Shown: positions 1-34,417 of the stretch, in pieces
Numbering within the stretch: the first letter of the stretch is position 1
Layout: each line of letters starts with the position of its first letter
Assembly (NCBI RefSeq): GCF_041860085.1
Contig: NZ_CP124747.1
Location: 4,154,001-4,218,000, forward strand
DNA length: 64,000 nt
Direction of reading: 5' to 3'
Source of the DNA: Schlesneria sp. DSM 10557
GTDB lineage: Bacteria > Planctomycetota > Planctomycetia > Planctomycetales > Planctomycetaceae
The notes under the pieces: generated by a model
The model's database searches: none
What the model was told of the DNA's origin: nothing
Seen by the model: only the letters and a program-made list of their open reading frames with translations
Made by a program: the position numbers and the translations under genes

Positions 1-2
1 TC

Positions 3-1934
3 CGCTCGCGTATTCCTGAGTCCAACTGGATTCGCTTTCCGGACTACTCATTCGAGGAAATTTCCGAGATCTTTCGGCGTGAGTGTGTCAAACGTCAATT
101 GGTGTTAACGCCAGATGCCGAACAATCAGCATTACGGTTCCTCGGCGCGGAGTTGAAGCGACACCGACTCGGAAACGGACGTGGTGTGCGAAATCTCGTC
201 GATCAGATTGTCCGCAACCGTGCAGCTCAAGGTGGTGGTCCTGTCTCTCCGGCAATGGTGCCCGAGACCACTCGCTATGACAACGACCGTGTCCAGGACC
301 TTCTTACGAACCTGAACACGGATTTTGTTGGACTCAAAAACCTGAAGGAGTTTTTGCAAAAGACGGCATTGCGCGCTCGTCGGGCGGAGGAATGCGGAAC
401 GCTCGTCGAAGGTTTTTTGCATTGCCGATTCGTGGGGCCGCCGGGAACAGGGAAAACATCTGTTGCTCGGCGTGTCGGCCAGATTTTCCACGCGATGGGA
501 TTGTTGAGTCACGGTCGCGTTCGAGAGGTGAATCCTGTTTCCCATTTCGGCTCACAATACGTCAGCCAATTCGCTGAACAAGTGGCCGAGCAATTCCGCT
601 TGGCCAAGGGGGGCGTGCTGTTCATCGACGAAGCCTATCAGCTTGCCGAACAAGACCAGGGTGTGCAAATCATCCACCAAATTGTGCAGACGCTCACACA
701 GCCGACGTTTGCGGACACGCTCGTAATCATGGCGGGATATCGTGATCCAATAAATCGACTGCTCGAACGTAATCCCGGCCTGGCGAGTCGCATTCCTAAC
801 GAAATTGTGTTTGAGCAGTTCTCCGTTGATGAATTAGCCGCCTTGTTTCATCGCGAATTGGAAAAGAGAGATCATCTCGTTCGCTCTGACGAGCGCGAGA
901 CATTTGATGGTGGCTTGAGGCCACGGATTAGTCGAGAGCGCGGTGATCCGCACTTCGCGAATGCGCGTTCATTGCAAACTTTGGTTGATGAAGTTCTCGA
1001 TCACCAACGAGCGCGAATCGAAGCGACTGGCGATCCACAGAGGATGCGTGTTCGACTTGAGGACTTGGGAGTGTCTCAGGCTACGTCAGAAGACATCCAG
1101 CGACTCATGCAGGAGTTGGACGATCGCTTCGTGGGCATGACGACTGTTAAAGATCAAATGCGCGACATTGCAATTGACGTCCAAATGCAGGCTGAACTCG
1201 GTGGCCAGTCTCCAAAGGCTCCTCGAATGTTGTTCCTGGGCAATCCGGGCACCGGAAAGACCAGCGCAGCGAGGGAACTTGCTCGTCTTTTGAAAGCCGT
1301 GGGAGCAGTGGTCAGCGACCGATGGGTGGAAACTCGTGGCACGGAATTGAAGGGATCATTTCTCGGCCAGACCAAAGACAAGGTCATCGAGGTCATTGCG
1401 GACGCTCGCGGCGGCGTACTATTTATTGACGAAGTTTACTCTCTGGGAAATGACTGCGGCGGAATGGATAGCTACGCCTTGGAAGCAATTGATGCGATCG
1501 TTGGGCAAACGGAACTGCCTGAGAACGTGCAGACAGCAATTATTTTGGCGGGCTATTTGAAACCAATGCGTGCCTTCTTGGGAACCAATCCTGGATTGGC
1601 GAGACGATTCCCGGCCACAATCTCGTTTCCGGATTATTCAGATGAGGAGTGCCTTGAAATCCTTCAGCGTTGGTTTGTCAGAACTCAGTCAGGCCTAACC
1701 TTGCCCATTGAGAAGCCTGGCGTGCGTGACACATTACTGTCCGCGATTGGCCAGCGGCGTTTGCGACCTCATTTTGGAAATGCCGGCGACATTGAAGAGC
1801 TCGGCCAGCGCATTGTCTCAGCCAGGAATTCACGACTTCATCAACTGCCACAGACCATGTGGCGCGACCAATCGCGGCCGACCATCGAAGACATCAATCG
1901 GGGGGTGGAGCAATGGCTCACAGGACTGATGTAG
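3..1934 (+). CDS. Multi-domain CbxX/CfxQ-type AAA ATPase (5'-partial)
   Basis: The reading frame is open from base 3 with no start, so the gene begins outside the window. The first visible residues (SRIPESNWIRFPDYSFEE, bases 9-62) are the end of an upstream AAA module, matching the later 'ASRIPNEIVFEQFS' and 'ARRFPATISFPDYS' segments. Two complete AAA modules follow. The first has Walker A GPPGTGKT (bases 435-458) and Walker B GGVLFIDEAY. The second has Walker A GNPGTGKT (near 1239-1262) and Walker B GGVLFIDEVY. After modules 1 and 2 comes a helical segment of the 'HFANARSLQTLVDEV' kind, typical of CbxX/CfxQ/SpoVK proteins. The protein therefore has at least three modules. Members of this family usually remodel protein complexes with ATP; the substrate here is unknown. 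The end overlaps the next gene by 22 bases, which points to an operon. A TTG at 99 could be read as a start but would cut a conserved module. Confidence 0.9.
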   Translation, partial: RSRIPESNWIRFPDYSFEEISEIFRRECVKRQLVLTPDAEQSALRFLGAELKRHRLGNGRGVRNLVDQIVRNRAAQGGGPVSPAMVPETTRYDNDRVQDLLTNLNTDFVGLKNLKEFLQKTALRARRAEECGTLVEGFLHCRFVGPPGTGKTSVARRVGQIFHAMGLLSHGRVREVNPVSHFGSQYVSQFAEQVAEQFRLAKGGVLFIDEAYQLAEQDQGVQIIHQIVQTLTQPTFADTLVIMAGYRDPINRLLERNPGLASRIPNEIVFEQFSVDELAALFHRELEKRDHLVRSDERETFDGGLRPRISRERGDPHFANARSLQTLVDEVLDHQRARIEATGDPQRMRVRLEDLGVSQATSEDIQRLMQELDDRFVGMTTVKDQMRDIAIDVQMQAELGGQSPKAPRMLFLGNPGTGKTSAARELARLLKAVGAVVSDRWVETRGTELKGSFLGQTKDKVIEVIADARGGVLFIDEVYSLGNDCGGMDSYALEAIDAIVGQTELPENVQTAIILAGYLKPMRAFLGTNPGLARRFPATISFPDYSDEECLEILQRWFVRTQSGLTLPIEKPGVRDTLLSAIGQRRLRPHFGNAGDIEELGQRIVSARNSRLHQLPQTMWRDQSRPTIEDINRGVEQWLTGLM

Positions 1935-2779
1935 CACCGATTACGGTCTCTGACGCCGTAAGAAAGTTGGCGACGCAGAGTCAGCGAAGTGACGACCCTG
2001 TGAAAGCTGCGGCGCTGGAATTGGCAGCCGCGCTGATTGACGCATCCGCGAATCGGAACAGTGCGTCGAAGGCTTCAAGTTCGATTCCCGATTCTGCCGA
2101 TACTGTTCTTTCGGAGTGGGCTAAATCCTGCGCGGGACTGCTCGCTGCCATGGCGGGGCCTCTATCGCATGATCCGCGAAAGTCGAACGGAACGGAGATT
2201 TCCGCGGAAGCAACTTCACTTTCGGTGGCGGCCGAGCGACTCGCAAATCAGACGCGATTGTCCAGCGAATCGCTGGCCAACCTTGTCCGAGAACTCAAGG
2301 CGAATTCGGCGGAGATCGCTCGGCAGGCCGGGGAAGTTGGAACACTGAGCTTGGCGTCACAACGTGAGCGACTGCGGCTTAATGAAGATCTGCGAAAAGC
2401 AGAATTCCTGACCGCGGAACTCAAATCGATGGCGGCAGAGCGTGGGCCGGTGGTTGAACGAATTCGTCTGCTGCAAGAACGCTTTCAACTTGCTCAAGGT
2501 ATGGTCGAGGAACAACGAAAGTTCGAGCAACAAGTGCGTGACGCGGATTCGGCTGCGACTCTTGCTGAGGCATCGGTCAAAAAGCTCAGTGCCGAACTCC
2601 AAGAATGTCAGAAGAGGTTGGAAGTGCTTCAGGCCGAACATGCCGTCCTGCCAGATCGAATCAAAATGACCCGAGACCTTATCGAGAAGCTGAAGCAATC
2701 ACCGGATCAAAAATTGTTTGAAGGAATCCAGAAAATCTGGAAGCAGTTGCCGCTCGACCACTCCAATGGAGGTTCGTGA
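1913..2779 (+). CDS. Hypothetical helical/coiled-coil protein
   Basis: 288 residues, family not recognised. The ATG at 1913 is preferred to the in-frame ATG at 1859 because a purine-rich GGGGGTGGAG (1901-1910) lies just upstream. It overlaps the end of the AAA gene by 22 bases. The first ~130 residues are Ala/Ser-rich and probably helical. Roughly residues 110-275 have a heptad-like pattern of Leu, Glu, Arg and Gln (for example LRLNEDLRKAEFLTAELKS and LSAELQECQKRLEVLQAEH), so a coiled coil is likely. No signal peptide or membrane segment is visible. Its position between two AAA ATPase genes suggests a scaffold or adaptor for the complex; that is inference from context only. Confidence 0.85.
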   Translation: MAHRTDVAPITVSDAVRKLATQSQRSDDPVKAAALELAAALIDASANRNSASKASSSIPDSADTVLSEWAKSCAGLLAAMAGPLSHDPRKSNGTEISAEATSLSVAAERLANQTRLSSESLANLVRELKANSAEIARQAGEVGTLSLASQRERLRLNEDLRKAEFLTAELKSMAAERGPVVERIRLLQERFQLAQGMVEEQRKFEQQVRDADSAATLAEASVKKLSAELQECQKRLEVLQAEHAVLPDRIKMTRDLIEKLKQSPDQKLFEGIQKIWKQLPLDHSNGGS

Positions 2780-3804
2780 TGTCGCGGCAGCAAACTCAAA
2801 CGAAGACAGGCACTGCAACATCAGGTCCACTAGTGGAACAAATTGCCGAGACCGCATCTTGGACTCGTCGACTTGGCGATATGTCGGAATCGCTGGCCGC
2901 CTCGGTGACCGAGTGGACCGCGACCAGCCGGAAGGGAATTGTCGAAACAGTCGGACAGCCGTTCGAGCAATTGCTGTCGTCGGGATCTGCCGGCAGTCGG
3001 CGCTGGGCGACGTTGCTGTTGCTGGAGTCGCCGGTGGTTCGTCGTGCGGCGAAGGTTGTCTTGATCGAAAAGATCTCTGAACGAGGTGTGTATCGAGATG
3101 TGAGCGATGTGCAGGATGTCGGTGCTTTGGCGGTCGGTTGTCTCTTGGCGGCGGCGATGCTTCAGGCTCGGCATGATGTCACAAGAATCGTGGAATTTAT
3201 TGGTGAGTACATTGAGCAACAAACGGTTCACGTTATTGCGTCTGCGGACGCCAGTCTGCTGGGACTGATGCTCACGTGCAACGAACTTGATGCGTTGAAT
3301 CGAAGTGTGCGTCACCATGAATTGGCGGATGTCTTGGCCCTGGCACGTTGGATCAGCGCTTTAGATTCTGGCAACGCTGAGCGTGTTGCGGCAGATTTGC
3401 CATCGGGCTTTCTGAGTCAAGCTTGGTTCGAGCGCCGAGCCTACCGAGGGATGCGTCGCCATTGGGCTCGCAAAGATGGGTTAGCCGCCGGAGCGGCGGG
3501 GGAAACATCGCTGCCTGGATGGCTGCTGCCGCGCAGCCAGTCCGACCTCCTGTCGGAAGGGTACGGGGCCATGGTTGTGGAATGGACAATTGCTGCCGTG
3601 CGACGCTGGCCGGATGGGGATCGAATGTCGCATGATGACGTGGCAGAACACCGAAATCGTGCGAAGGCACTTGGGACGCAAGCCGCTACGATTCTGCAAC
3701 GGTGTGAAGAAGCTGGAGAGCTGACGAAGTGGCTTCGGGCAAGTCTGCGTGATTTAGTGAGCACTCCCGTCACGGAACGACGAGTGTTCAGAAACACAAA
3801 CTGA
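2779..3804 (+). CDS. Hypothetical helical protein of the MoxR operon
   Basis: 341 residues from the ATG at 2779, which overlaps the previous stop as TGATG. GGAGG at 2768-2772 fits this start; a GTG at 2776 is the alternative. The protein appears almost entirely helical, with repeated Ala/Leu/Val-rich stretches (RRWATLLLLESPVVRRAAK, VGALAVGCLLAAAMLQAR, SLLGLMLTCNELDAL). The hydrophobic runs are too short and too interrupted by charge to be clear membrane spans. No catalytic motif is seen. It sits 27 bases before the MoxR gene, so it is probably co-translated with the ATPase and may be a dedicated partner. Function unknown. Confidence 0.85.
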   Translation: MSRQQTQTKTGTATSGPLVEQIAETASWTRRLGDMSESLAASVTEWTATSRKGIVETVGQPFEQLLSSGSAGSRRWATLLLLESPVVRRAAKVVLIEKISERGVYRDVSDVQDVGALAVGCLLAAAMLQARHDVTRIVEFIGEYIEQQTVHVIASADASLLGLMLTCNELDALNRSVRHHELADVLALARWISALDSGNAERVAADLPSGFLSQAWFERRAYRGMRRHWARKDGLAAGAAGETSLPGWLLPRSQSDLLSEGYGAMVVEWTIAAVRRWPDGDRMSHDDVAEHRNRAKALGTQAATILQRCEEAGELTKWLRASLRDLVSTPVTERRVFRNTN

Positions 3805-3831
3805 TCGTCTACGTGAGGAACTGCACCCGCG

Positions 3832-5022
3832 ATGAAGTTGCTTCAAAAGATTGGCAATCTAAAAGAGTTTGCCGCCCTTCCACCGAAAGCTGTTGAGCAA
3901 GAACTCGCGGCAATAATTCGAGGAGAACAGACGGCTGGTCTTAATAAACTGGAACACCTTGGCGAAACAGTCTTCGAGCGTGTGCGGAAACTCGTCGCCG
4001 CTGTCGGACGGTCGTTTCATTCGAGAGATCGTGAGATTGAGGCGGTGGCTGCTGGGTTCATCAGCGGAGTACCTGTCTTGCTTCTGGGGCCACCAGGCAC
4101 AGCGAAGAGCGCTGTCGTTCGGAAGCTTGCATCGCTTTGCGGACTCGCTTCTGGCGAAGACGAACGGAACGGCGCCGAAGGAAACGATTCCCTGTTTCAC
4201 GGGGGCTACTTTGAATACCTCCTGACGAATCACACGATGCCAGAGGAATTGTTCGGTGGGCCTGACCTGGCCGAGTTGGCCAAAGGGAAGATCAAGAAAG
4301 TGACGACCGGAAAACTCCCACGTGCGGAGATTGCGTTTCTGGATGAGGTTTTCCGTGGCGGCGGTCACATCCTCAATACCCTGCTCACGATCATCAACGA
4401 AAAGCGATTCGACAGTGGCGACGGCGCGATCCATGTGCCTCTGCTGGGTCTGGTCGGTGCATCGAACGACATCCCGCGTGAGCAGGACTTGGAAGCATTC
4501 TTTGACCGATTTCCAGTGCGTGCGTGGATGCAATCGGTGTTGGAGTCTCGTCAAAAGGCAAAAGCACCGAACGCAAAGAACCCAGCGGCACAGCTAATCA
4601 ATCTTTCCGTGGACGCAGAAAAGAAACGACTGGCGGACGCTTGGGATGTTCCTACAACTGTGAAAGAACGACTCGATAAACGAGAGTCTTGCACAAATGA
4701 TTTTCGATTCGCCCGGATGCTATTGCTGCAACGTTTGGCAGACACGGTCGATAATTCTCCTCGCTTTGAGCAATTCGAGCGGCTATTTCGCGCCGTGAGA
4801 GACCGCGCGCGACTCTCGGATCGTAGCTTTGGTCAGCTTTGGCTCTTCGCTGCGGCATTGGACCGGCTGCGCAGATCTGATGACCCGAATATGGGATACC
4901 CAAACTGCAAGGGCCATCTCGAAGTTTTTCGATATGTTGCTCGCTCACCTCAGGATTCTAAATGGCTGGACGACGTTGTCATACAACACATGCAAGGTTT
5001 GCAGCATAACGGAGTGGTATAG
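3832..5022 (+). CDS. MoxR-family AAA+ ATPase
   Basis: 396 residues. Walker A GPPGTAKS lies at residues 86-93, the MoxR-typical TMPEELFGGPD near 135-145, and Walker B IAFLDE at 167-172, followed by VFRGGGHILNTLLTIINEKRF. This is the insert-bearing helix-2 segment of MoxR/RavA ATPases, which read there roughly 'ILNTLLT.INER.F'. Sensor-1-like GASND is near 209-213 and an arginine-finger region FFDRFPVR near 223-230. MoxR ATPases act as chaperone-like remodellers, usually with a vWA-domain partner encoded next door. Here the neighbours are unusual proteins and a giant propeller protein, as in the predicted MoxR-vWA-beta-propeller systems. The start ATG has GAGGAA at 3815-3820, a rather long spacing. 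The next gene starts 3 bases after the stop. Confidence 0.95.
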   Translation: MKLLQKIGNLKEFAALPPKAVEQELAAIIRGEQTAGLNKLEHLGETVFERVRKLVAAVGRSFHSRDREIEAVAAGFISGVPVLLLGPPGTAKSAVVRKLASLCGLASGEDERNGAEGNDSLFHGGYFEYLLTNHTMPEELFGGPDLAELAKGKIKKVTTGKLPRAEIAFLDEVFRGGGHILNTLLTIINEKRFDSGDGAIHVPLLGLVGASNDIPREQDLEAFFDRFPVRAWMQSVLESRQKAKAPNAKNPAAQLINLSVDAEKKRLADAWDVPTTVKERLDKRESCTNDFRFARMLLLQRLADTVDNSPRFEQFERLFRAVRDRARLSDRSFGQLWLFAAALDRLRRSDDPNMGYPNCKGHLEVFRYVARSPQDSKWLDDVVIQHMQGLQHNGVV

Positions 5023-5025
5023 ACG

Positions 5026-6570
5026 GTGGCGACATTAAATGATCCATTTCAATCAGCACTCAGAGTCCTCGCGGGACATGCTATTTGGACTCGCGACATG
5101 GCATGGGCACAGCAATGGTTTGATGGCTTTCTAAAGCCGCTGTTTGCCGAAGGGTTGTTCTTGCCACCGCAATTCGCGTTCGATCTCCGATCCGCTGCGG
5201 AGCGGGGTGAACGTCGGTATGGACAGTTTGCGGGCTTACGAGCGGATCTGTCGAACTGGAAGGAGTTTATGCTTTGGATGCACTCCGTCACGGTCGAACG
5301 CCTGCCATCTGGGACGGCCGCTCGCGCAGAGATGCGCAATGCCTCTGCGATGAGAATTGCCAGACGCCTGGCTCTCAACCTTATGGGGCGTGTCGATGTT
5401 TCTGCATTTCGAGTTGGTGAGCAATTCGACGCGTATTCAGCAGTCTTATTTGAAGTACAGAGGCTTCAGGGTGATGCACAAGCTGCCGAGCGATTCGCCC
5501 CAGTTTGTTCGATCATTACAGAGGCCGTACGAGTCCAGAGATTCAATGATTTAGTTCCGTTCTGTGAATCTCACGCAGCGAATGATCGCCGCACGATTGC
5601 CATCGATCCATTTCTTCAGAAATTGCTGATCGTCCCTGGCTCAGAGCGTGCGGCCTTGGCAGAACCGCCGGTTCAAGGGCGAATCCTTCATGCGGACAGT
5701 CCTCGGAAGATTCTGGCGGCGGCGGGGGAATTTGCTGGGCGCGACCTTGGTGGCCTGCCAGACAATCTAGGCCGACTCACTCCCACCGAGCTTTTGTTGC
5801 TCCATGAAGCGTTTCGCAGCGATAAGGATCAACAGCCGATCATCGAGAGTGAGGGCTTCCGCACGCTCTTTCTGCTTCGTGCTTCGCAGTCAGGTCTGTT
5901 GCAGCGTTTCCACTTTGACACCGAGTTGGCACACACCGAGCCGACCGTTTACCTCCAAATTGAATTGGTGGATGATCCGAACGATCACCGGCTCAGCGAT
6001 CCGCCGCGTCCCCCACTCATTTCCTATTACCGAGCGGTCGTCGTCCATCTCTTCCATCAGTTCGCGCGGATCGCGGAAGAATTCCAGTGGTCGCTTCATG
6101 GAGTGATCGCGCACAACTCTTGGAGTTCGAGGAATCGAGTCGTATTGGAGTCCCGCGAGGTTCAAGAACTTAGTGCATCCATCCAAAAGGCTTTTGACAC
6201 GCTCGTGTTGAATTGTCCGTCTGCGTTCGTCGCGACTCGATGCCATTCGGATTCCCGGCGAACACAACCCAATGCGCCGGCCGGTGATTTCGATCTGGCG
6301 ATTCGGATGGTGGTCGGCCGTGAATCCCACGACCGAGATGATCAGCTCCCGTGGCTACGCACCCAAGCAAGAAATGAACGCGGAGTTCGAGTTGAGCTAC
6401 GTCGTGATGGCACTTGGGGTTGGTCCAGTTCAGACGATTGTGCGAGTACTGAGTGTCTCGATGTCTTAGACTTCTCGTGGGACATCGACGATCCCGCCGC
6501 AATGGCCACCCAGTTGATTCTGAAAACACTAGGTGTGGAACCGGTGCCGCCTGATTTGGAGATCAAGTGA
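5026..6570 (+). CDS. MoxR-operon protein, possibly a degenerate vWA-like component
   Basis: 514 residues from a GTG at 5026, with GGAGTGG at 5011-5017. The family is not recognised with certainty. The N-terminal half (1-230) looks helical. From about residue 308 the order is strand (VYLQIELVDDPNDH), long helix (YYRAVVVHLFHQFARIAEE), strand (SLHGVIAHNSW), and further strand-like segments up to DFDLAIRMVV. That order resembles a vWA (Rossmann-like) domain, but the DxSxS MIDAS motif is absent. Because MoxR ATPases normally pair with a vWA protein, this gene is the best candidate for that role in this operon; this is inference. An alternative is an unrelated 'bpX'-type component. The stop overlaps the next start by 4 bases. 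Confidence 0.85.
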   Translation: MATLNDPFQSALRVLAGHAIWTRDMAWAQQWFDGFLKPLFAEGLFLPPQFAFDLRSAAERGERRYGQFAGLRADLSNWKEFMLWMHSVTVERLPSGTAARAEMRNASAMRIARRLALNLMGRVDVSAFRVGEQFDAYSAVLFEVQRLQGDAQAAERFAPVCSIITEAVRVQRFNDLVPFCESHAANDRRTIAIDPFLQKLLIVPGSERAALAEPPVQGRILHADSPRKILAAAGEFAGRDLGGLPDNLGRLTPTELLLLHEAFRSDKDQQPIIESEGFRTLFLLRASQSGLLQRFHFDTELAHTEPTVYLQIELVDDPNDHRLSDPPRPPLISYYRAVVVHLFHQFARIAEEFQWSLHGVIAHNSWSSRNRVVLESREVQELSASIQKAFDTLVLNCPSAFVATRCHSDSRRTQPNAPAGDFDLAIRMVVGRESHDRDDQLPWLRTQARNERGVRVELRRDGTWGWSSSDDCASTECLDVLDFSWDIDDPAAMATQLILKTLGVEPVPPDLEIK

Positions 6571-10004: not shown

Positions 10005-10510
10005 TCTTCCCCAAACTGTCAATCACCGGAATTGTTGAACCATGCTCTGTCGATGCGGAGTCGAGGCTTGTTGCCGTAAGAGAAAAGGTCGAGGCTGTTG
10101 AGCAAAAAGCGTCGGAGACACAGACGCTTCTTGAACGGATTCGTTCGGAGACGGCTGCCATAGACGTAGCGACACGAACCGAGACTGCACTCCATCGCCT
10201 GGCACGCGACACACATCGCGAGCATCGTGCTCAAGAGCAAAAACTTGAATCCGACGTTGTGAGCGTTGAACGGCAACTGGAAGCGATGCGGGGAGATGTT
10301 GAAGGCGACACTCTCGCGACCGAACGGCGATGTCGCGATGTGAGAGACCAGATTGGCGCTGGAGGGAACGCGGCGGCACACCTCAGTTTGTCCGTTCAAA
10401 CTATTTCCGCATCTCAGCAGCGAATGGAAACACTCCGCGACGAGGGGGGAGGAATACTTGATCGCCTCCGTGCCATCGCACGACGACAGCAATCGGAGCA
10501 ATCGACATAG
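10001..10510 (+). CDS. Small coiled-coil protein
   Basis: 169 residues. The ATG at 10001 overlaps the preceding TGA (ATGA). Apart from a short N-terminal segment (MIFPKLSITGIVEP), the sequence is charged and heptad-like from about residue 20 to the end (VREKVEAVEQKASETQTLLE, EHRAQEQKLESDVVSVERQ). No signal peptide or membrane segment is seen. Its place directly after the 1145-residue coiled-coil gene, and with zero spacing before the giant membrane protein, suggests it links the two or pairs with the long coil. Function unknown. Confidence 0.82.
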   Translation: MIFPKLSITGIVEPCSVDAESRLVAVREKVEAVEQKASETQTLLERIRSETAAIDVATRTETALHRLARDTHREHRAQEQKLESDVVSVERQLEAMRGDVEGDTLATERRCRDVRDQIGAGGNAAAHLSLSVQTISASQQRMETLRDEGGGILDRLRAIARRQQSEQST

Positions 10511-16500: not shown

Positions 16501-19500
16501 GTTCGATGGTCTCGGAGTCCTCGGTGAGGAAGTTGTCACCATTCGACGAACAATGAAACCTGAACCCGGTGTGTCGATCTATCGTCTCCGTGACGGCAAG
16601 GATATCGGATCTTTGTTGTCGGAGGAAGATCGAGGGCAGCTTTCCAGAGTGACGGAATTCCAGTTCGTTGTCGATCGCACCCGGCAGTTGCTAACGGTGA
16701 AAATGGGTGACGGAGTACTGGAACAACCCGGAACAGGAAATAACAGAGTCACGGTGCTTTCGCTGAGCGATGACAATCCGCGTTTCGAGAATATCGCGAC
16801 GACGGACCTGCTTAACAAATCTTCCCAACTGCCACTGCAGTACGGTCGTACTGGTATGTTGCCAGTTATGGGACGGCGCCTGGATCAAGACGGCTGGTTT
16901 GCCGATCACGCGGTTCTGAAGATTGCAGCGAAGAGTATTAACTCCGACCTCAGAAACGTTGTGCCGTTGGAGATGCGTGATGGTCAACGCATTTCGCTGC
17001 CGATCAAAAACAACATTTCTACCGCTCCGCCTGAAGGATTGGGCGGCTTTGCGCTGATTGATGGTGAACTTCGCAGCAAAGACGGCCAAATTCGGTTCGG
17101 GCGCATCGTAGTTGACGGGATGAAGTTCGCTTGTGATGCCTGGGTCGATGCTCTCCCTTTCAAGAAAAGCGAATTCTTCTCGCTCGACCAGTTTGGACAA
17201 CTTTGGCGATGGACCGATTCTGACGGGACGCTGACTCGACAATTCGTCGCACAACCAACTTCTGTTCGCACATCACGTGCGCGGAGAATGGCGCTAACGG
17301 CCGAAGACAACTCAGCCTTGGTATTGCTTGACGAAAAAAGCGCCCCGTTCGCACGCATTCTTCCTGATGGCAAAGTAGACGTGGTCAACCAGGACGTTGC
17401 GACTATCGATTCCCCCGCACAGCGAAGCGGGCAATGGGGGCCAATCGCTTGGGAACGAACAACGGACAAAACGACTAAAAGGTCGTCCCACATAATGTCG
17501 CTAGTGATCTCTGATGGCAGCTCGAAATCGACCATGCCGATTCACATGACTAGTTCAGGGTTGAATGTTGATACTCCAGTCGGATTGAAAGCCATTGAGG
17601 ATGACAAGCAACCGTGGCTGCACTTGGGCCGTGCCGCCGATGGACGCGAGGTGGTCTGTCCACCAATTGCCGACTCTCGGCTTCTCCAAATGCGGTTGGT
17701 TAGCAAGTTTTCGCCAGCTCTGAAGCCCGTGGAATTCCGGAGTGGTTCGTTCCAGTTCGTGCCTCGCGACGATAGCTGGGAAGTGCAGATCGATGGAAAG
17801 CGAATCGATCTCGTGTCGGGACGTCTCGCCGTGGACACCGTTCTCGGTGCGACTTCAGTCCTTTCTGCGGGCGGCACGGAGCTCTTTCTCAGGACGGCTC
17901 AGCCGCGTGTGCTCGTCCGACAGCGTTGGGGACGGGACATGGCGCTCGGTATGCCAGAACTGTTCGCAACGCCAGGTGAGATTCGCTCCTTACGGACTTG
18001 GCGAGGTGAGTTAGTCGTTCAAACAACTGACAGCAACTGGTATAGCCTGCACGATGGTCAGTGGACCCCGACGGCCCCAGAGTGGCAAGCAACCGTTGGC
18101 GAACCATCAAGGTGGAAATTCAGTCCAGACCACAAAGTGTTGAATTGGAGTAACCAACCTATCCCGCTTCTGAACGGCAAGGCTGGATTTGCTCTTGCGT
18201 CCGATGTTGTGACGGAAGCGACAGAATCGGATGGCGCACCGAAAATCCGACAGGGACCGAATGGTGATATTGTTTTCACATCGGCGTCTGGTGACTGGCT
18301 GTCGTGGCGACAAGGTCAGATTGTGGCCGTCCCCACCGAAGACGTGCCTCCCCGCGTTTCCGCCGAGATTGAGCTTCTTGAATCGCGTATCCGAGTCCCA
18401 AAGCGTGGTGGCGACGATGGAGTCTACAGGCTTATGTCCGAAGTCGACTCATCGGCGGCCTTGCCAATGAAGCTAGTTGACGGGCGGCTGCCGCATCATC
18501 AAGCCGAAAAACTCTTGTCTTGGGACAAAGATGGTTTGCAGGTCCAGTTGGCATCGAAACATGGAAATTGGAGCTTCGATGGCCAATCACTGCGAGAGGG
18601 TAAGTCTCCTCTGTTCTCGACCGCGCCGATCGCCAGCCCCAACACGTCGCCGGACTATGATCGCCACGTTGCCATCGAGTTGCGCAAGGATCGATGGTTG
18701 CGGTGGACACAGCAGGATCGATCTTGGCAGTTTGAATTTGCCGCCTCGAAGTCCGCCACCTCGGCTGATGCCGTGCTTGGGTCGCTGACCGAAAGTGGAT
18801 TCCCTATCGACAATCCTGCCGAAGTTCGCCCATTGGAATTACGAGATGACCGAATACGATTCGCTTTTCGTAGTCAACTCTGGAGTCGATCCCTCGCAAA
18901 TTCGATAGTAGACTTTGCCAAGGAAGGCGAGCTTCCGTTTGGCCCCCAAACAGCCCCCGGCCTAGATCTCGAAACTGGCCGGTGCACACTCCTCGCACGG
19001 GAGGTGATGCCGAACATGGCCGACCCGATGCTGGGCGTATTTTCTCCAGACGGTCGGTACGACGCAGCCTCTTCAGCGGTAGCCTCCGTCCAACGAACAG
19101 ATTTAACGCTTGCATTGAGACTTCAGCAGCGCAGTCCGGCACTATTAGACTTTGAAGTGCTTCGTGATGGCACACGGTGGAAAACACCATTCGAGAATCC
19201 GCGTGGAGTTCTCGAACGTGATCAACGACTACTGGTACTAAATGAAGAGGGAACCTCGCTCGGAGTCTGGGACCGAACAGGCCGTCTTTTTGGACTTGTC
19301 ACGACAAATGCGAGGATCACTGCATTTTGGCGACAGGGAAATCGCGTTTTTGCCAGGCAAGCGATGAGCGATGAAGAGTCTGTCGTCGAACTGCGAGAGC
19401 AAGACAACGGACTTCCGCAGGTCGTTCCTGTCGATCTACCCGACAACGAAACTGCTATCACAACCGATGCCTTCGCTGTTCGACGTTCATTTCAAGACGG

Positions 19501-20788
19501 CCACTTCGATATTGTTTCGCAAGTACAAGGTCAGGACGACTGGCAGGTATTGGACTCATGGGCAAGTACGGGCTTTCCCGGTTCACGGGTAGATGTTGCA
19601 CTTTGGCTAAGCGACAACGCGCTCGCTTGCCAAGATGGTCTGGGAATTCGACAGCTCGAATTGACGGGACGAGGGTACTCACGGCTTCACTGGCCCTTGA
19701 GTAACGTCGAACGGCCATCCATGTTTCGTCATGCGGGCCACATCATTTACGGACAGACCGATTCACAAATCGTCGTTTGCGTGGAAGGCAACTCGGAAGG
19801 ACCGCGATTCACTCCACCTGGCGAGGAATCTGGCATTCAGAGAATCGCTGACTGGCAAGTCCAGCAGTCAGGACGCGATCGACCAGTTTCGTTGCAGGCC
19901 ACGGACTCAAAAGATCGTCCCATCTTGCTCGGCGATGCGACCTCCGCGGGTCAGAAACCCCTCGGTGCTCTTCTGATCGATCGCGTCCAACTGCTTGGCA
20001 ACTTCAAGGCGCATCCGGCATTGGTGCTGCCCGCTGGAGTGCAATGGCTCGACGAGCATGGAGCATTTCTGGAGGCGGGTGAAGAAGTGCGGGCGATTCT
20101 TGCGAACGGCAACCTACGAGTACTCGGTTCACCGAAAGGCGATTTGGTCCTTGTATCGGACCATGCGAACGACAGAGCAATTCATGTCGATCAATTGCTT
20201 CATCTCGGCTCTTGCGAGTCGGAGGCTGTCGATAGCCTTTATATTGGCGAAGACGACGACTGGCGAGTTTTTCGGAACAATGATCAGGAACTCGTTTTGG
20301 AACGTCCCGTTGCAACCATCCAGGGCCGGCAGGTGGACCACATCAAAGGCGACGACATCTTTTCTAATGGCGGTCAACTGTCTTTCGATAGCGTGCTGTC
20401 AGTTGCCCAGAATCCTGATGACGGTAGCACTCTACTGATCTCAACGGAGCGGGCAGTTGAAGTTGTTCGGTTCACACCCAACGGTCCAGTGATGCAAGTC
20501 AGCCAACTTGGAAAAGTGGAGTTTCAGCAACGAAAAGACCGCAATTCTCTGTCAGTTTCCTGGGACGGAGAGGCCGAGATGAACCTCAAGTTTGGAGACC
20601 AACTCCTGCACCTTTCTGTTCCCCCGAAGCGGAAGCAAGGCCACGAGACGTCGCGTTCAAACTGGTCACTTCCGCGCGCTATTCAAGCAGGTCGCAGAGC
20701 ATGGATCGTTGAGCCAACCGGAGTTCATTGGGTTGAAACTGACGATCGTTGGATCGCTCTCCGTCGCAAAATGGAAGTGGAAAGATAG
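10511..20788 (+). CDS. Giant membrane-anchored beta-propeller protein (3425 aa)
   Basis: A single uninterrupted frame of 3425 codons starts right after the previous stop. Four hydrophobic segments lie near residues 13-32, 47-63, 69-91 and 104-122. A positively charged stretch (RFLARRDLRREPR) and a helical region follow to ~430, then a fifth span at ~455-478. The positive-inside rule places the remaining ~2900 residues outside the cytoplasm. That part is a long series of beta-rich units with WD/Kelch-like four-strand rhythm, for example LWVAAGEHDQ, LWASTETGRLYQYDDKRW, LWISDTKNGVTRL and LWRWTDSDGTLTR. At ~300-400 residues per propeller it could fold into seven to ten propellers (estimate). No catalytic motif is evident. 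It is the likely propeller component of a MoxR-linked ternary system. Base composition looks lower in G+C than in the genes beyond 26 kb. Confidence 0.92.
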   Translation: MRTQQTPTWTSRACGVFAVATGVTCLHAVSFLPGFCDWAATDLLHGWSAVLVADVAIILVFAAPLRSGLGVLPLGLGVLCGGTIWWLWFALFHTDLLSRNDQYFTVLVAMIPAVILGKALLGPSLLRFLARRDLRREPRASALLRLARAIMLGPERGHLCRDQHHWWHWLFQTYNWARCSLRIGPSRSCAIEKAIEDGIDYESSRLRRLLDMEAAGTPPIADQADRAAAAGAAYLELVAIMDETALSDQVSESTWMRRFLAVWDLIRFAERIQQKEFSKARAELLLGVERLSSPIPILFEMVRAARSENPRFALIRRVSEKVAGNPNLSEQLAALLLADLLVDLEHATWALGLVDEMVSGGVVEWMHPTLERIRLRAEQQILRHEVSLEASDIFARYAQCEHSAVIADAPLCSRAITNISASRFNVTRIPPRRGTRGLPAIARPLFDPGPGRGFATASLLAITIFAAILVTTWVPFGQALKPLADLHRQIDYHEHPLTSVAINPNDRSLLITSLGGGLHHVDTHTFRIRTERPDNGGPSTNFLTDVAVSEEGRIAVLTADGAKATASGLDVQSTNGWKRLISPQGVSGLSAKEISFIGANGADKVLLAGSRVLRYRTAQRELTELIHDNQGPPIHGRIVAVASSPTDANRLWVAAGEHDQPSTRVLELSLRDDGRYSTQDITGNALPTETIKHLATGADRLWASTETGRLYQYDDKRWKLRIDGDTGLDLGAVRYAIVGAGDPPALWLTDRAASGEIRSIRARILPSQGILPSRPWRRVQLGAGNVPRSPDLRLGDHDGTPAAWFDTVRQEHVLAVPGRNGGLWCFRASLELPESVDQATLKAEQILTPGERICSIDHRGQKLVCLLETLNGTQRRLAIESIDAISDGLESATVVQQSVMPDENVFGGARILSLRHQQAEKRFDLLTDRGRILTYDLSRHGLTTSSGTQLVDRVGAPIGPLRSVDSDDGKLVAVDEQSRLVEVVLPSRLDEENALPAKILFEPSKIAPSVNLEPVKVATEPDGIDILMAEPGSTLGVPWRLKASSLQNRENGAGSEKRSLVEWVPLPVEKPLQIASLTRLQDGGRIGPQLATDQSGQLLWRDTSGWKKVEKSLAGGTEIVPAVGATFGQDSEGLKRIALTAQGPVLVEALWTTPPSILRFPITAIAAMRGANPQKSPVCVVVGHAGGLAQYDLTSRKWRALVTAAATNWSFISTENEQGVCEHIWAIKIENGKTISQAILVKGDQADIVANSEIAEARGAGNSLGLLFSDGHVAVATPDRVIKTLVHEKSSAVGDAKLRRLALADRIYSIDTTGRLLSATKDTLQWRVEDQLKEGVPYRDLETTSDGALLLVSDDGKVLRHTQGRTQELGVFAHQVERLDTAIAAADIKTGRLEVLDRQGLRSEILAGGRSPAVQIGDHVIAALSDGDDLFIAGPSGAVWRDPNQRRSIPVLNGDLIDRFEKLGPHRIAWKKTQPFLLTVGAAPKLTKLGDPGTEVVLAPDSTLWISDTKNGVTRLKPVNGANTGLFDAESLLGNKVTQAAPLSDGHFVLQGKFGELLIYEAAKRRIRQLANANELPSEWRFAIIAKQVFIISSSAKQQDSVYRVDSNPIALRLLEKNASRVVEYSNGLAWFDDTGSLRHIDAQGKDQILIRLPLKQRSADAALQVTQVLAGDDNSLWVHAGSTAFEYRVKEGGVAQQLSNVNELVRVGTQAAAIRKSPNTPKQLIALGAKLNLLASAFEGARGGADSVLTWRSANGTLSIEHLGDDAKVYQKSVTLLSRLASNATNRIAAADSRKLFCRTDQGVIVAYDVIEGGWSTLPKLGAGWEALGQMGELIIAKRQTAAGADVMTLKPSGQLQDIWNVPGTAWFLDNGFIGLIRDGNNVVRIVKQHLDGSTELIGQYNRLSVPFAPERSFVVESKSLKAALVRTSDAAGKSSEIFVVRADQSATRLAEIKLPPLLTKLQVFTQSGEFLFLDSGNCLVRINATSGETKVGTEMFDGLGVLGEEVVTIRRTMKPEPGVSIYRLRDGKDIGSLLSEEDRGQLSRVTEFQFVVDRTRQLLTVKMGDGVLEQPGTGNNRVTVLSLSDDNPRFENIATTDLLNKSSQLPLQYGRTGMLPVMGRRLDQDGWFADHAVLKIAAKSINSDLRNVVPLEMRDGQRISLPIKNNISTAPPEGLGGFALIDGELRSKDGQIRFGRIVVDGMKFACDAWVDALPFKKSEFFSLDQFGQLWRWTDSDGTLTRQFVAQPTSVRTSRARRMALTAEDNSALVLLDEKSAPFARILPDGKVDVVNQDVATIDSPAQRSGQWGPIAWERTTDKTTKRSSHIMSLVISDGSSKSTMPIHMTSSGLNVDTPVGLKAIEDDKQPWLHLGRAADGREVVCPPIADSRLLQMRLVSKFSPALKPVEFRSGSFQFVPRDDSWEVQIDGKRIDLVSGRLAVDTVLGATSVLSAGGTELFLRTAQPRVLVRQRWGRDMALGMPELFATPGEIRSLRTWRGELVVQTTDSNWYSLHDGQWTPTAPEWQATVGEPSRWKFSPDHKVLNWSNQPIPLLNGKAGFALASDVVTEATESDGAPKIRQGPNGDIVFTSASGDWLSWRQGQIVAVPTEDVPPRVSAEIELLESRIRVPKRGGDDGVYRLMSEVDSSAALPMKLVDGRLPHHQAEKLLSWDKDGLQVQLASKHGNWSFDGQSLREGKSPLFSTAPIASPNTSPDYDRHVAIELRKDRWLRWTQQDRSWQFEFAASKSATSADAVLGSLTESGFPIDNPAEVRPLELRDDRIRFAFRSQLWSRSLANSIVDFAKEGELPFGPQTAPGLDLETGRCTLLAREVMPNMADPMLGVFSPDGRYDAASSAVASVQRTDLTLALRLQQRSPALLDFEVLRDGTRWKTPFENPRGVLERDQRLLVLNEEGTSLGVWDRTGRLFGLVTTNARITAFWRQGNRVFARQAMSDEESVVELREQDNGLPQVVPVDLPDNETAITTDAFAVRRSFQDGHFDIVSQVQGQDDWQVLDSWASTGFPGSRVDVALWLSDNALACQDGLGIRQLELTGRGYSRLHWPLSNVERPSMFRHAGHIIYGQTDSQIVVCVEGNSEGPRFTPPGEESGIQRIADWQVQQSGRDRPVSLQATDSKDRPILLGDATSAGQKPLGALLIDRVQLLGNFKAHPALVLPAGVQWLDEHGAFLEAGEEVRAILANGNLRVLGSPKGDLVLVSDHANDRAIHVDQLLHLGSCESEAVDSLYIGEDDDWRVFRNNDQELVLERPVATIQGRQVDHIKGDDIFSNGGQLSFDSVLSVAQNPDDGSTLLISTERAVEVVRFTPNGPVMQVSQLGKVEFQQRKDRNSLSVSWDGEAEMNLKFGDQLLHLSVPPKRKQGHETSRSNWSLPRAIQAGRRAWIVEPTGVHWVETDDRWIALRRKMEVER

Positions 20789-20829
20789 CATGCATTTCGG
20801 CAAGATTTTGTTTTTGTGCGGCGTCAACA

Positions 20830-22134
20830 TCACGAACGCACAGTTTTTCGCATTGCAGCAGCGAATTTTAGCAACGTGTCGAAGCGGTCGTTTGGGCGTT
20901 CTGCGACGCTCCATTGAAGGGCCTCGACGACTGCTTGTAAGCCGATCTCTTCATGGAGATGCGCCGCTTTCCGCGTAAGGTCGGCTGCGAACGGTACTGT
21001 GATGGAGCTCGCGTGACTGTCAGCGAGATGGCGACAGCCGCTTAGATAGGCAAGAGTGGCCGAGCGGCCGTCTGGGAACTGTGCAGAGACAAGGTCATCA
21101 ACTGTTTCGCCCATTAACGCGAGAACGATCGCTCCAACTAAGAACACTTGTGACGGTTCCGGCTTGGACAAGTCCGCCGCGTCCGCCAACCCGAGCTCAA
21201 CTCCACGCCATTCCGGAAGTAACCCACGACCGGGAATCACGGCCGTAGGATCAAGTAACTGCGTGAATCGCTGTCCCGGACTCCAATCGAACGCAATCCA
21301 AGAAGGGGAAAGGTCCAAGACATGGATACCGTGTGCATTGAGCGCGTCAAGTATGCCACAGAGCGATATGCCCAGTTCAACACATTCGCGAGGTGAGAGG
21401 CATTCGCCGCCCCGAACGCGATCTGCCAGTGTTCGCCTCGTGACCTCGGGTTGCAAAAATGCAATGCCGCAGGCGGCCTCATCTTCCATGTGCAGCAAAA
21501 CACGAGCGACCTGCGAAGATACCGTCGTTCTCTGAAGATACTGAGCTGTTTCAATCCGCTTTTTCCAGCATTTCTCTGCTTCGGTCGAAGTTGCTGCATC
21601 ATCAGATGGAATCAGCACGAACCCAAAATTCAAATCCTGCTCGTCGGCCCCGACCACAGCGTAGGCATCGACCCATCGCGATGACCAACGATGCTGCGGC
21701 AGTGTCCAACGGGAGAAAGGCGGCAACGATCCGTTTCCCGACTGTAATCGTTCACGAACGCCTACGACGAATTCAGGCCATGACAGCGGCAGAGGAGGGA
21801 GTGACGAAGATGGCTCTGTAACGATCGAGTAGGAATCGGGAACCTTTGGCGGCTCTGGCAAAAGCGGCAATTCATCAACCGCTGCCAGTCCAAGTTCACT
21901 GAGCCAAGAGTTCAGTTCGGCAACCGTCTCACTCGTAAGATTGTTTGCAAGCCGATTGATTCTCGAAGACGGCCCATAAAGGCGAAGCGTCTCTAAGAGA
22001 CGTACAACACTAGAGGAACGCTCCCGCTTTGCCTCATCGGGATCAAGTCGATCAAGAATGGCCCACAACGCGTTCCGAAGTTGGTCGACATGAGGCATGA
22101 AATGGTTTCGTTGTGGCTGAGCGCAATTACCCAT
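20830..22134 (-). CDS. Degenerate protein kinase (pseudokinase) facing the operon
   Basis: 434 residues; ATG at 22134, with an alternative ATG at 22098, and neither has a clear ribosome site. The N-terminal ~170 residues are helical and Pro-rich. The rest follows a Ser/Thr kinase fold: hinge-like ARVLLHMEDEAACGIAFL, an alphaE-like helix (ECVELGISLCGILDALNAHG), a catalytic-loop equivalent HVLDLSPSWIAF, then QLLDPTAV in the DFG place, and an end segment ERPNDRFDTLLKF. Compared with HRDLKPSNI..DFG, the Arg, Lys and Asn are lost and DFG reads LDP. No glycine loop or clear beta-3 Lys is visible, so catalysis is doubtful. It is convergent with the giant propeller gene, 41 bases apart. A binding or sensing role in the same system is inferred from position. 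Confidence 0.8.
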   Translation of the reverse strand: MGNCAQPQRNHFMPHVDQLRNALWAILDRLDPDEAKRERSSSVVRLLETLRLYGPSSRINRLANNLTSETVAELNSWLSELGLAAVDELPLLPEPPKVPDSYSIVTEPSSSLPPLPLSWPEFVVGVRERLQSGNGSLPPFSRWTLPQHRWSSRWVDAYAVVGADEQDLNFGFVLIPSDDAATSTEAEKCWKKRIETAQYLQRTTVSSQVARVLLHMEDEAACGIAFLQPEVTRRTLADRVRGGECLSPRECVELGISLCGILDALNAHGIHVLDLSPSWIAFDWSPGQRFTQLLDPTAVIPGRGLLPEWRGVELGLADAADLSKPEPSQVFLVGAIVLALMGETVDDLVSAQFPDGRSATLAYLSGCRHLADSHASSITVPFAADLTRKAAHLHEEIGLQAVVEALQWSVAERPNDRFDTLLKFAAAMRKTVRS

Positions 22135-22664: not shown

Positions 22665-22695
22665 TTTTTGCCGAATTAAGGCAAGGAGATTGGAG

Positions 22696-32694: not shown

Positions 32695-32766
32695 GGGCTG
32701 GTAGCTGAGACGGTTTAGCGCCTGGCTGAAGACCAGGAGAGAAGGATTCGAGCGCCTTCCAGCCCA
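32695..32766 (+). tRNA. tRNA-Phe-like (anticodon GAA)
   Basis: 72 bases fold as a cloverleaf: acceptor GGGCTGG/CCAGCCC (7 of 7), D stem GCTG/TAGC, anticodon stem CCTGG/CCAGG with loop CTGAAGA (anticodon GAA at 32728-32730), and T loop TTCGAGC at 32747-32753. Discriminator A. The last T-stem pair is A·G instead of the near-universal G-C, so the gene may be degenerate or specialised. CCA is not encoded. Confidence 0.6.
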
Positions 32767-32893
32767 CATTCTGTGTTGGAGTGTGCCACAAAGACATCTT
32801 CATCGAGGACGAAGAGTTGACGTGCTCGTAGGTCGATTTCGGGACGACTTCGCGCCAGTCCCCGTTCTCTAACTAACGATGTAATAACCGGAA

Positions 32894-34407: not shown

Positions 34408-34417
34408 TGTTCATGTC

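What the first reader, a model, noticed from the sequence alone, without database searches (positions are those of the whole stretch)
3..22134. Candidate new variant of the MoxR-vWA-beta-propeller conflict system
Seen: a MoxR ATPase (3832), a multi-module CbxX-type AAA protein, two helical proteins, a 514-aa protein, two coiled-coil proteins and a 3425-aa propeller protein in one overlapping operon, with a pseudokinase facing it. Known: MoxR-vWA-propeller 'ternary' systems were predicted as conflict/defence modules in socially complex bacteria (Kaur, Burroughs, Iyer and Aravind, 2020). Inference: this operon is a related or new type, because a CbxX protein with several AAA modules and a pseudokinase do not belong to the simple three-part scheme and no intact vWA is present. 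A two-ATPase machine coupled to an external propeller array would be new.
Basis: partly seen in the sequence, partly recalled or inferred. Interest (0 to 1): 0.85.

Follow-up and report, generated by a model that had tools for sequence, protein, structure and literature searches.

The report
Mosaic MoxR, CbbX and propeller operon
A planctomycete carries a rare 11-gene operon, found gene for gene in one distant bacterium, that joins two kinds of ATP-driven protein machine, a radical enzyme and a giant membrane-anchored propeller protein, and looks like a new variant of a predicted but untested class of bacterial conflict systems.

Summary
The unit is 11 genes, about 25.5 kb, window -3358 to 22134: radical-SAM enzyme, coiled-coil "MSGPK" protein, triple-AAA CbbX-type protein, coiled-coil protein, helical protein, MoxR ATPase, 514-aa protein, two coiled-coil proteins, 3425-aa membrane protein, and a convergent kinase-like protein. 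A contig assigned to Verrucomicrobia holds all 11 in the same order and orientation (22-56% identity; giant protein 3425 versus 3420 aa). The set is therefore one inherited unit. It is rare: searches with the 514-aa protein in samples of 392, 59 and 387 genomes found clear matches only in these two genomes.

The MoxR branches with those of FtsH ternary systems, apart from the genome's own MoxR paralogues. The 514-aa protein is probably a degenerate vWA partner, nearest the FtsH-type ivWA (profile evidence, moderate). The giant protein has membrane segments and about 2950 aa of beta structure matching tandem propellers. The kinase-like protein is supported by profile comparison.

It fails a defining feature of both the FtsH and beta-propeller ternary types. 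A conflict or defence role is inferred, not shown.

The parts
1..1934 (+). CbbX/SpoVK-type protein, 1104 aa, three AAA+ modules with intact Walker A and B plus a ~285-aa N-terminal region of unknown fold (P0010); starts left of the window at -1380. Left of it, also outside the window: P0011, coiled-coil MSGPK protein, 407 aa, at -2684 to -1461 (L012:2316-3539), and P0012, radical-SAM enzyme, 225 aa, CX3CX2C, at -3358 to -2681 (L012:1642-2319), likely the first gene of the unit
   Evidence: P0010; best NCBIfam models SpoVK and CbbX, below their cut-offs, on the 643-aa part inside the window; Walker motifs; CbbX structure 3zuh 6e-49; 49.9% identical homologue. P0012: Fer4_12 5.7e-28 and Radical_SAM 3.7e-8, pyruvate formate-lyase activating enzyme 1.9e-4, 52.5% identical homologue. 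P0011: no convincing Pfam match, 37.5% identical homologue, related C-terminus in G849 beside a radical-SAM gene (hhalign E 8e-5)
1859..2779 (+). Coiled-coil protein, up to 306 aa as called (P0002; the true start may lie further in)
   Evidence: 30.6% identical homologue in the same order
2776..3804 (+).
   Evidence: No Pfam or NCBIfam match; 31.3% identical homologue
3832..5022 (+). MoxR-type AAA+ ATPase, 396 aa, P-loop GPPGTAKS (P0004)
   Evidence: PF20030 bpMoxR 3.9e-46; RavA structures 4.6e-36; 56.3% identical homologue; tree
5026..6570 (+). Probable degenerate vWA partner of MoxR, 514 aa, vWA-like region within about 206-417; no DxSxS metal site in the aligned first strand (P0005)
   Evidence: Profile match to MoxR-adjacent vWA proteins and to three Pfam ivWA proteins; 33.0% identical homologue; relative in L044 directly after MoxR
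6567..10004 (+). N-terminal part of ~430 aa plus very long coiled coil, 1145 aa (P0006)
   Evidence: 31.6% identical homologue of 859 aa with a shorter coil
10001..10510 (+). Small coiled-coil protein, 169 aa (P0007)
   Evidence: same-place protein of 177 aa, 22.1% identical, so mainly position and length
10511..20788 (+). Giant membrane protein, 3425 aa: four hydrophobic N-terminal segments, a soluble region ~123-450, another segment 453-471, then ~2950 aa of beta structure, probably tandem beta-propellers outside the cytoplasm (P0008)
   Evidence: Hydropathy and charge; Foldseek hits of residues 475-1270 to tandem propellers; 33.7% identical homologue of 3420 aa
20830..22134 (-). Kinase-like protein without intact catalytic motifs, 434 aa (P0009), convergent
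   Evidence: hhalign to 19 kinases of the same genome, E 4.6e-5 over 218 columns; convergent 471-aa homologue, 30.0% identical, beside L064

Best explanation
This is a self-contained, probably horizontally moving 11-gene machine: a new variant of the MoxR-vWA-centred systems predicted by Kaur et al. 2020. It is nearest their FtsH ternary type by MoxR and vWA, but has a CbbX-type triple ATPase in place of the FtsH-type protein and a giant propeller protein in the membrane. Most likely working order, with steps marked. (1) The giant protein sits in the cytoplasmic membrane and holds tandem propellers outside, where they sense or bind something at the cell surface (topology and fold supported; sensing inferred). 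(2) Its cytoplasmic region recruits the MoxR ring and the degenerate vWA partner, which has lost its metal site and so works as a scaffold or adaptor, aided by the coiled-coil proteins (inferred). (3) The radical-SAM enzyme modifies the neighbouring MSGPK protein (inferred from adjacency in two different kinds of locus). (4) The triple-AAA CbbX-type ATPase remodels that protein or the assembled complex and so arms or releases it (inferred from CbbX chemistry). (5) The kinase-like protein acts as a non-catalytic regulator (inferred from lost motifs). The most likely output is a regulated conflict response at the envelope, against phage or a competitor.
For: Unit: collinear 11-gene copy in Verrucomicrobia UBA6176, convergent kinase-like gene included. 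MoxR: PF20030; clade with L058-L060, whose following genes are Pfam ivWA proteins. Degenerate vWA: hhalign of three P0005 family members against 35 MoxR-adjacent proteins E 1e-4 over 121 columns, and against the three Pfam ivWA proteins alone E 4.3e-5, 69%, over 184 columns; reversed versions at most 0.7% and five other operon proteins at most 0.5% over both calls. Topology. Propellers: 778 Foldseek hits at E <= 1e-3, the 50 shown dominated by tandem propellers, among them the periplasmic sensor domains of BT4663 and BT4673. Radical-SAM, MSGPK, AAA and kinase-like genes stand together again upstream of a GAP1-N2 gene in G849. Rarity. Mobile signs: LPD1 and DUF932 genes flank the verrucomicrobial copy; transposase-type genes lie right of the window copy.
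Against: No recognised effector (nuclease, NADase, protease, pore) lies among the conserved genes. The TIR-domain gene left of the window copy was not recognised in the verrucomicrobial copy. PADLOC, run on nine of the proteins (643-aa part of P0010, P0002-P0009), gave only generic AAA, coil or weak matches. Both structure models are low-confidence (pLDDT 36.7 and 45.4), and the fold search for the 514-aa protein found nothing. Pfam's own ivWA model does not find P0005 or its homologue. vWA support for single sequences is at decoy level (scores 23.0-27.8, best of 300 decoys 27.2), and the two-sequence profile reaches only 12.7% against the ivWA proteins. A spurious 33% hhalign hit over 13 columns shows that weak values need care. 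In the verrucomicrobial copy the charges round the last membrane segment point weakly the other way (-1 before, +1 after). Two full members only, one of them a metagenome-assembled genome.
Confidence: 0.5

Rival explanations
1. Not a conflict system but a dedicated envelope maturation or assembly machine: MoxR and CbbX-type chaperones, with a radical-SAM maturase, build or mature a large surface complex of which the giant propeller protein is the core.
For: The closest solved relatives of the ATPases by sequence are RavA and CbbX, known as assembly or repair chaperones. No effector domain was recognised. The order of the parts and the length of the giant protein are strikingly fixed (3425 versus 3420 aa), unlike a fast-diversifying effector.
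Against: Rarity and spread over two phyla without neighbours in the sampled relatives, and mobile-element genes at the verrucomicrobial copy, point to an accessory mobile trait. MoxR and vWA are nearest to a predicted conflict system, and the radical-SAM/MSGPK/AAA/kinase-like set also stands upstream of GAP1-N2, from another predicted conflict system.
Confidence: 0.3
2. An ordinary FtsH ternary or beta-propeller ternary system with extra genes.
For: For FtsH type: MoxR clade and ivWA-like P0005, radical-SAM gene. For propeller type: bpMoxR match, membrane segments and propellers in the last large protein.
Against: The FtsH-type protein is replaced by three active CbbX-type modules, while L058 has an AAA plus M41 peptidase protein. 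The propeller-type vWA strictly carries a C-terminal propeller (section 22) and P0005 has little room for one. No bpX match in the lists shown or by hhalign.
Confidence: 0.12
3. Two unrelated operons that happen to abut (radical-SAM/MSGPK/CbbX and MoxR/propeller).
For: In G849 the first set occurs without MoxR genes in the stretch read, and in L044 the MoxR set occurs without the first set in the stretch read.
Against: All 11 genes are collinear in two phyla; in the verrucomicrobial copy the plus-strand genes lie -28 to +19 bases apart.
Confidence: 0.05

Closest known systems
MoxR-vWA subsystem 3, FtsH ternary systems (Kaur et al. 2020, PMC7159879, section 21 read), as in L058
   Same: MoxR on the same branch (support 0.893); divergent vWA-like partner directly after MoxR, nearest ivWA; a second AAA protein with several modules; a radical-SAM gene; extra helical proteins
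   Different: Three active CbbX-type modules instead of an inactive plus an active FtsH-type module (L058 also has M41 peptidase); giant propeller membrane protein; kinase-like protein; Pfam ivWA does not find P0005; the words CbxX and DUF1257 do not occur in the paper
MoxR-vWA subsystem 4, beta-propeller ternary systems (same paper, section 22 read), as in L046
   Same: bpMoxR match; GXXXTAKS P-loop in the window copy; large membrane protein with propellers; known from planctomycetes and verrucomicrobia
   Different: vWA component has no C-terminal propeller; no bpX domains found; MoxR on a different branch from the bpX2 loci; propeller protein over three times the length of the 933-aa one in L046; radical-SAM, MSGPK, CbbX-type and kinase-like genes added
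GAP1-N2 GTPase-centric systems (same paper, sections 27 and 29 read), as in G849/L153
   Same: G849 shares the radical-SAM gene, the MSGPK-type protein, an AAA gene and a kinase-like gene in one run, with GAP1-N2 next after a 1.4 kb stretch not resolved
   Different: No MoxR, vWA or giant propeller protein in the stretch read; the AAA is of AAA_2 type; sections 27 and 29 do not describe this radical-SAM/MSGPK/AAA set
RavA and CbbX chaperones (PDB hits 3nbx, 3zuh)
   Same: ATPase cores
   Different: Domain make-up, gene setting and presumably substrate

Membership tests
FtsH ternary system (subsystem 3) | Third component with two FtsH-type AAA modules, the first inactive | tested here: not met
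   Three modules with intact Walker A and B, best NCBIfam models SpoVK/CbbX on the window part; residues 1-300 did not match the N-terminal half of the G849 AAA protein (0.9%)
FtsH ternary system (subsystem 3) | MoxR of that group | tested here: met
   14-member clade, support 0.893, with L058, L059 and L060, whose next genes match ivWA. The tree used loci found by likeness to this MoxR.
FtsH ternary system (subsystem 3) | Highly divergent vWA, in the simpler type fused to a large helical N-terminal domain | tested here: inconclusive
   hhalign of three members against three ivWA proteins 69%, of the pair 12.7%; Pfam ivWA none; helical N-terminal part only in a low-confidence model
FtsH ternary system (subsystem 3) | Radical-SAM gene in the operon (simpler type) | tested here: met
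   P0012
Beta-propeller ternary system (subsystem 4) | MoxR matching bpMoxR | tested here: met
   PF20030 157 bits, cut-off 27; the model also rings in 12 of 14 control genomes, so it is not specific
Beta-propeller ternary system (subsystem 4) | P-loop GXXXTAKS (often) | tested here: met
   GPPGTAKS in the window copy; the verrucomicrobial copy reads GPPGTAKT
Beta-propeller ternary system (subsystem 4) | vWA component strictly with a C-terminal propeller of about four blades | tested here: not met
   P0005 ends at 514 with its vWA-like match reaching 367-417, leaving about 100-150 residues; no propeller family matched
Beta-propeller ternary system (subsystem 4) | Third component with variable N-terminus, membrane segment, TPR and propeller | tested here: inconclusive
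   Membrane segments and propellers yes; TPR not detected
Beta-propeller ternary system (subsystem 4) | bpX domains | tested here: not met
   No bpX in the Pfam lists shown (lists for the AAA protein are cut at 25), while the same library found bpX2, bpX3 and, below cut-off, bpX1 in L046; hhalign best 0.6% against bpX2 and bpX3
Protein kinase superfamily (P0009) | Kinase fold | tested here: inconclusive
   hhalign pair 68%, E 4.6e-5, 218 columns; singles 23.8 and 16.5%; reversed 0.1%; no Pfam match
Protein kinase superfamily (P0009) | Catalytic HRD and DFG motifs | tested here: not met
   The catalytic loop reads VLD where kinases have HRD, and no DFG follows (motif names recalled)
Conflict/defence system | Protects against phage or competitor | not testable with these tools
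   Needs bench work

The most novel reading that the evidence does not exclude
The operon is the first seen example of a separate class of envelope-coupled immune machine: an extracytoplasmic ~2950-aa propeller array senses an attack at the surface and, through a MoxR ring with a metal-free vWA adaptor, triggers a triple-AAA chaperone to deploy a radical-SAM-modified protein. The radical-SAM/MSGPK/AAA/kinase-like cassette is then a portable arming module that is plugged into different sensor cores (MoxR-propeller here, GAP1-N2 in G849).
Probability: 0.2. Interest if true: 0.85.

Novelty: new variant of a known kind. Interest (0 to 1): 0.6.

Why it matters
The MoxR-vWA systems that I compared it with are sequence-based predictions in the paper I read. 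A variant that mixes features of two of their types in one conserved operon, and shares a radical-SAM/AAA/kinase-like cassette with a third kind, would show that these systems are built from exchangeable modules and would give a bounded 11-gene target for testing what they do. It also gives a clean case to ask what a vWA partner without its metal site does, and what such a radical-SAM enzyme modifies.

Tried and rejected
Chance or artefact: rejected by the collinear second copy. Plain membership of subsystem 3 or 4: rejected on tested defining features (see the membership test). Housekeeping MoxR: rejected (the sampled loci were chosen by likeness to this MoxR, which favours grouping with them). 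My own first reading, that the beta-propeller type is the nearest relative, was dropped after a late Pfam check of the comparison vWA proteins showed that the best-matching ones are FtsH-type ivWA.

Led nowhere: P0005 in 392 phylum genomes and 59 relatives (own genome only); a GTDB scan with MoxR alone (71 stretches, none confirmed); plasmids with P0005 (none); viral contigs with MoxR (1 locus, L149, used only as one of the comparison loci); P0005 profile in 387 genomes of the verrucomicrobial phylum, which gave G439 itself and one marginal match with four stops, taken as chance; MoxR profile in 156 genomes of that order at 1e-60 (G439 only); MSGPK domain in 246 phylum genomes (own genome and two weak matches at 0.002 and 0.004, not followed); P0011 in 327 class genomes (own, G849, and a G087 match whose frame looks unrelated, dropped). 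The right-flank gene in 15 genomes of the genus proved too rich in paralogues to show an empty site. Sequence repeats within P0008: none convincing. Promoter and terminator scans: fewer promoter-like sites than in shuffles, terminator-like sites within about 1.2 sd. Fold search of the P0005 model: no match at E <= 0.001. P0006 and P0008 parts against components of typical propeller systems: best 4.1% for P0008 residues 470-1100 against the propeller of the vWA component.

Wider family, suggestive only: L044 has MoxR followed at once by a P0005 relative (its 100% match is to a profile that contains it). The L044 coiled-coil gene two before MoxR had only a 3.7% match to P0002, and the 410-aa gene just before MoxR none above 2%. 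In L045 and L104 the second gene after MoxR is the only one in its locus with a match above 2% to the P0006 N-terminus (3.7% and 10.2%), but an upstream gene in L053 reaches 5.2% too, so this is weak. The gene after MoxR in L104 matched nothing in Pfam.
Full report
CHECK OF THE OBSERVATION. The window is bases 4154001-4218000 of a complete 7.07 Mb chromosome. Its phylum is Planctomycetota: genome G145, listed as same phylum, holds contig L045, which is letter for letter the reverse complement of L065, titled Planctomycetota bacterium. I do not know the species. Fetching the left side (window and stretch agree letter for letter) shows that the frame open at base 3 belongs to a 1104-aa protein starting at -1380. 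It is preceded by a 407-aa protein at -2684 to -1461 and a 225-aa radical-SAM protein at -3358 to -2681.

ONE INHERITED UNIT. One, a metagenome-assembled genome named Verrucomicrobia bacterium UBA6176 (L064), matched the MoxR over residues 1-394 at 54%; the next best was far behind (8e-127 against 9e-44). Other full copies may exist among what the scan did not keep. In that contig the whole set is present in the same order: radical SAM (52.5% identical over aligned positions), MSGPK protein (37.5), CbbX-type (49.9), P0002 (30.6), P0003 (31.3), MoxR (56.3), P0005 (33.0), P0006 (31.6; 859 against 1145 aa, the coil being shorter), P0007 (22.1) and P0008 (33.7; 3420 against 3425 aa). The convergent P0009 homologue follows (30.0). 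P0007 rests mainly on position and length. Spacing is similar in both copies. The TIR gene left of the window copy was not recognised in the verrucomicrobial copy (listing, read by eye), so I do not count it as part.

RARITY AND MOBILITY. A P0005 match was found in 1 of 392 phylum genomes and 1 of 59 relatives, each time the window's own genome. In the verrucomicrobial phylum it was found in 2 of 387: G439, the genome of L064 and centre of the search, and one marginal match with four stops. The MoxR profile at 1e-60 was found in 1 of 156 genomes of that order, again G439. These samples overlap in part and are not the whole collection. LPD1 and DUF932 genes flank the verrucomicrobial copy. To the right of the window copy are HTH_Tnp_1 and rve frames, IS3-like in arrangement (22690-23883; family name recalled). 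GC is 53-55% in the first 24 kb of the window against 56-61% after it, in 4-kb steps.

MOXR. P0004 matches bpMoxR (PF20030) at 3.9e-46. That model also rings in 12 of 14 control genomes, so I built a tree of 111 MoxR proteins. The window and L064 proteins pair (support 0.991), then L044 (0.999), then L045, L065 and L104 (0.973). The next clade of 14 (0.893) adds L053, L057, L058, L059, L060, L078, L106 and L115, and the next of 53 (0.921) adds the 16 loci with a bpX2 match. None of nine MoxR paralogues of the own genome falls in these. L065 repeats L045 and L108 shares sequence with L047, so the counts hold duplicates. The tree was rooted on the nine paralogues, which did not form a clade of their own, so the root is loose. 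The distances agree: 0.95 to L064, 2.1-3.6 to the nearest others, 6.6-7.5 to the nine. Pfam shows that the genes after MoxR in L058, L059 and L060 are ivWA proteins, the vWA of FtsH ternary systems, and L058 has an AAA plus M41-peptidase protein. The window MoxR is thus nearer to FtsH-type systems than to the typical propeller type.

THE 514-AA PROTEIN. Pairwise comparison with the L044 gene directly after MoxR gave 3e-4. Of 539 neighbouring frames from 100 loci, that gene was the best hhalign match to the P0005 pair (16%). Against a profile of 35 MoxR-adjacent proteins grown from L058 the pair gave E 4.5e-4 (33%), and with the L044 gene E 1e-4 (57%) over residues 232-367; against two other such profiles it was weaker (6.0 and 0.3% for the pair; 18.3 and 1.3% for three sequences). 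Of nine members of these profiles checked in Pfam, three match ivWA above cut-off, five match general VWA models, and one has only a sub-threshold ivWA match. Against the three ivWA proteins alone, three P0005 members gave E 4.3e-5 (69%) over 184 columns, residues 206-417; the pair alone gave 12.7%. Against five general VWA proteins they gave 4.0 and 3.4%. In some searches reversed versions gave at most 0.7%, and P0003, P0006, P0002, P0009 and P0011 at most 0.5%. As single sequences the members score 23.0-27.8, at or barely above the best of 300 decoys (27.2), while the pair scores 37.8. Pfam itself finds no vWA in P0005 or its homologue. The aligned first strand reads LQIELVDDP, without DxSxS. 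The AlphaFold model is poor (pLDDT 36.7); its order of elements, helices then alternating strands and helices from 306, would fit, but I give it little weight, and its fold search was empty. My reading is a degenerate vWA partner nearest the FtsH type, about 75% likely.

THE GIANT PROTEIN. A hydropathy scan gives hydrophobic segments at 14-32, 47-65, 69-92 and 104-122 and one at 453-471 in the window copy. In the verrucomicrobial copy only the stretches 43-67, 104-130 and 452-470 pass the same cut-off; either count of N-terminal segments is even. The loop after them is net positive in both (+4, +3), which puts the region 123-450 inside and the large beta region outside by the positive-inside rule (recalled). 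The charges round the last segment agree in the window copy (+4 before, -1 after) and weakly disagree in the other (-1, +1). No sequence family matches it convincingly, and no internal repeat stood out. The model of residues 475-1270 is all-beta but low-confidence (45.4). Foldseek nevertheless gives 778 matches at E <= 1e-3, best 2e-13. The 50 listed are dominated by tandem propellers: WD40 proteins, LRP2 and LRP6, the tricorn protease, a GH74 enzyme, and the periplasmic sensor domains of BT4663 and BT4673 (which of these are propellers is partly recalled). TM-scores by query length are low (0.11-0.23), so I claim the fold class, not an architecture.

RADICAL SAM, MSGPK, CBBX AND KINASE-LIKE PROTEINS. 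P0012 is a small radical-SAM protein. The 1104-aa protein has three AAA modules, each with intact Walker motifs. P0009 aligns with 19 kinases of the same genome over 218 columns (pair E 4.6e-5, 68%; singles 23.8 and 16.5%; reversed 0.1%) and has lost the catalytic motifs. The same test gave P0011 a 33% match over 13 columns, which I take as spurious. A search with the MSGPK pair led to genome G849. There a radical-SAM gene (99.9% hhalign match to P0012), an MSGPK protein (E 8e-5), an AAA_2 protein and a kinase-like protein (E 2.6e-4 over 83 columns) follow one another, and after 1.4 kb not resolved comes a GAP1-N2/GAP1-M protein. The kinase-like proteins of G849 and the window did not match each other directly (0.1%). 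The two systems share a cassette although their other parts differ. That is one locus only.

COMPARISON WITH WHAT IS KNOWN. I read sections 8, 21, 22, 23, 27 and 29 and word-search passages of Kaur et al. 2020 (PMC7159879), not the whole text and not its supplements. The operon fails the FtsH feature of subsystem 3 and the stated vWA-propeller feature of subsystem 4, but shares features of each. Library searches, of which I saw listings only apart from that paper, showed no title or abstract start that describes this combination; subscription papers are mostly not held.

VERDICT. A real, conserved and rare unit; a new variant of a known kind that rests on prediction. How it is built is fairly secure; what it does is inference.

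Noticed in passing
L153 (G849:C35), 595-12156: Radical-SAM gene, 755-aa MSGPK protein, AAA_2 protein and kinase-like protein in one run, with a GAP1-N2/GAP1-M protein further on: the window's cassette beside a different predicted conflict core.
   Followed up: partly
window -3965 to -3555 (L011:15935-16345): Short TIR-domain frame (136 aa, PF13676) just left of the radical-SAM gene; not recognised in the verrucomicrobial copy; may be truncated.
   Followed up: partly
window -4925 to -4008 (L011:14975-15892): 305-aa protein with a DUF4357 domain left of the operon.
   Followed up: no
window 22690-23883: HTH_Tnp_1 and integrase-core frames, arranged like an IS3-family element, right of the kinase-like gene.
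   Followed up: no
L044, 2-4379: Planctomycete contig end with a MoxR on the same branch, followed at once by a relative of the 514-aa protein and preceded by a 410-aa and a coiled-coil protein with a hydrophobic start: perhaps a simpler form of the system.
   Followed up: partly
L104, 9692-18690: Victivallales locus with MoxR, 507-aa, 828-aa and further genes; the 828-aa protein has a weak match (10%) to the N-terminus of the 1145-aa protein.
   Followed up: partly
L060:9957-12221: FtsH-type ivWA protein after MoxR fused to a C-terminal FGE-sulfatase (sulfatase-modifying factor) domain.
   Followed up: no
L064:2-2359 and L145:10010-10864: LPD1 polyvalent-type protein and DUF932 protein on the two sides of the verrucomicrobial copy, signs of a mobile element.
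   Followed up: partly
window -11587 to -9818 (L011:8313-10082, minus strand): 589-aa protein with a C-terminal pretoxin HINT domain (PF07591) and a weak HEAT match.
   Followed up: no
window 32695-35299: Six tRNA genes (Phe, three Ser, Cys, Gly) on the plus strand to the right of the operon.
   Followed up: no
window 40030-44310, minus strand: 1426-aa frame with a protein kinase domain (43294-44034), one of 44 kinase matches in this genome.
   Followed up: no
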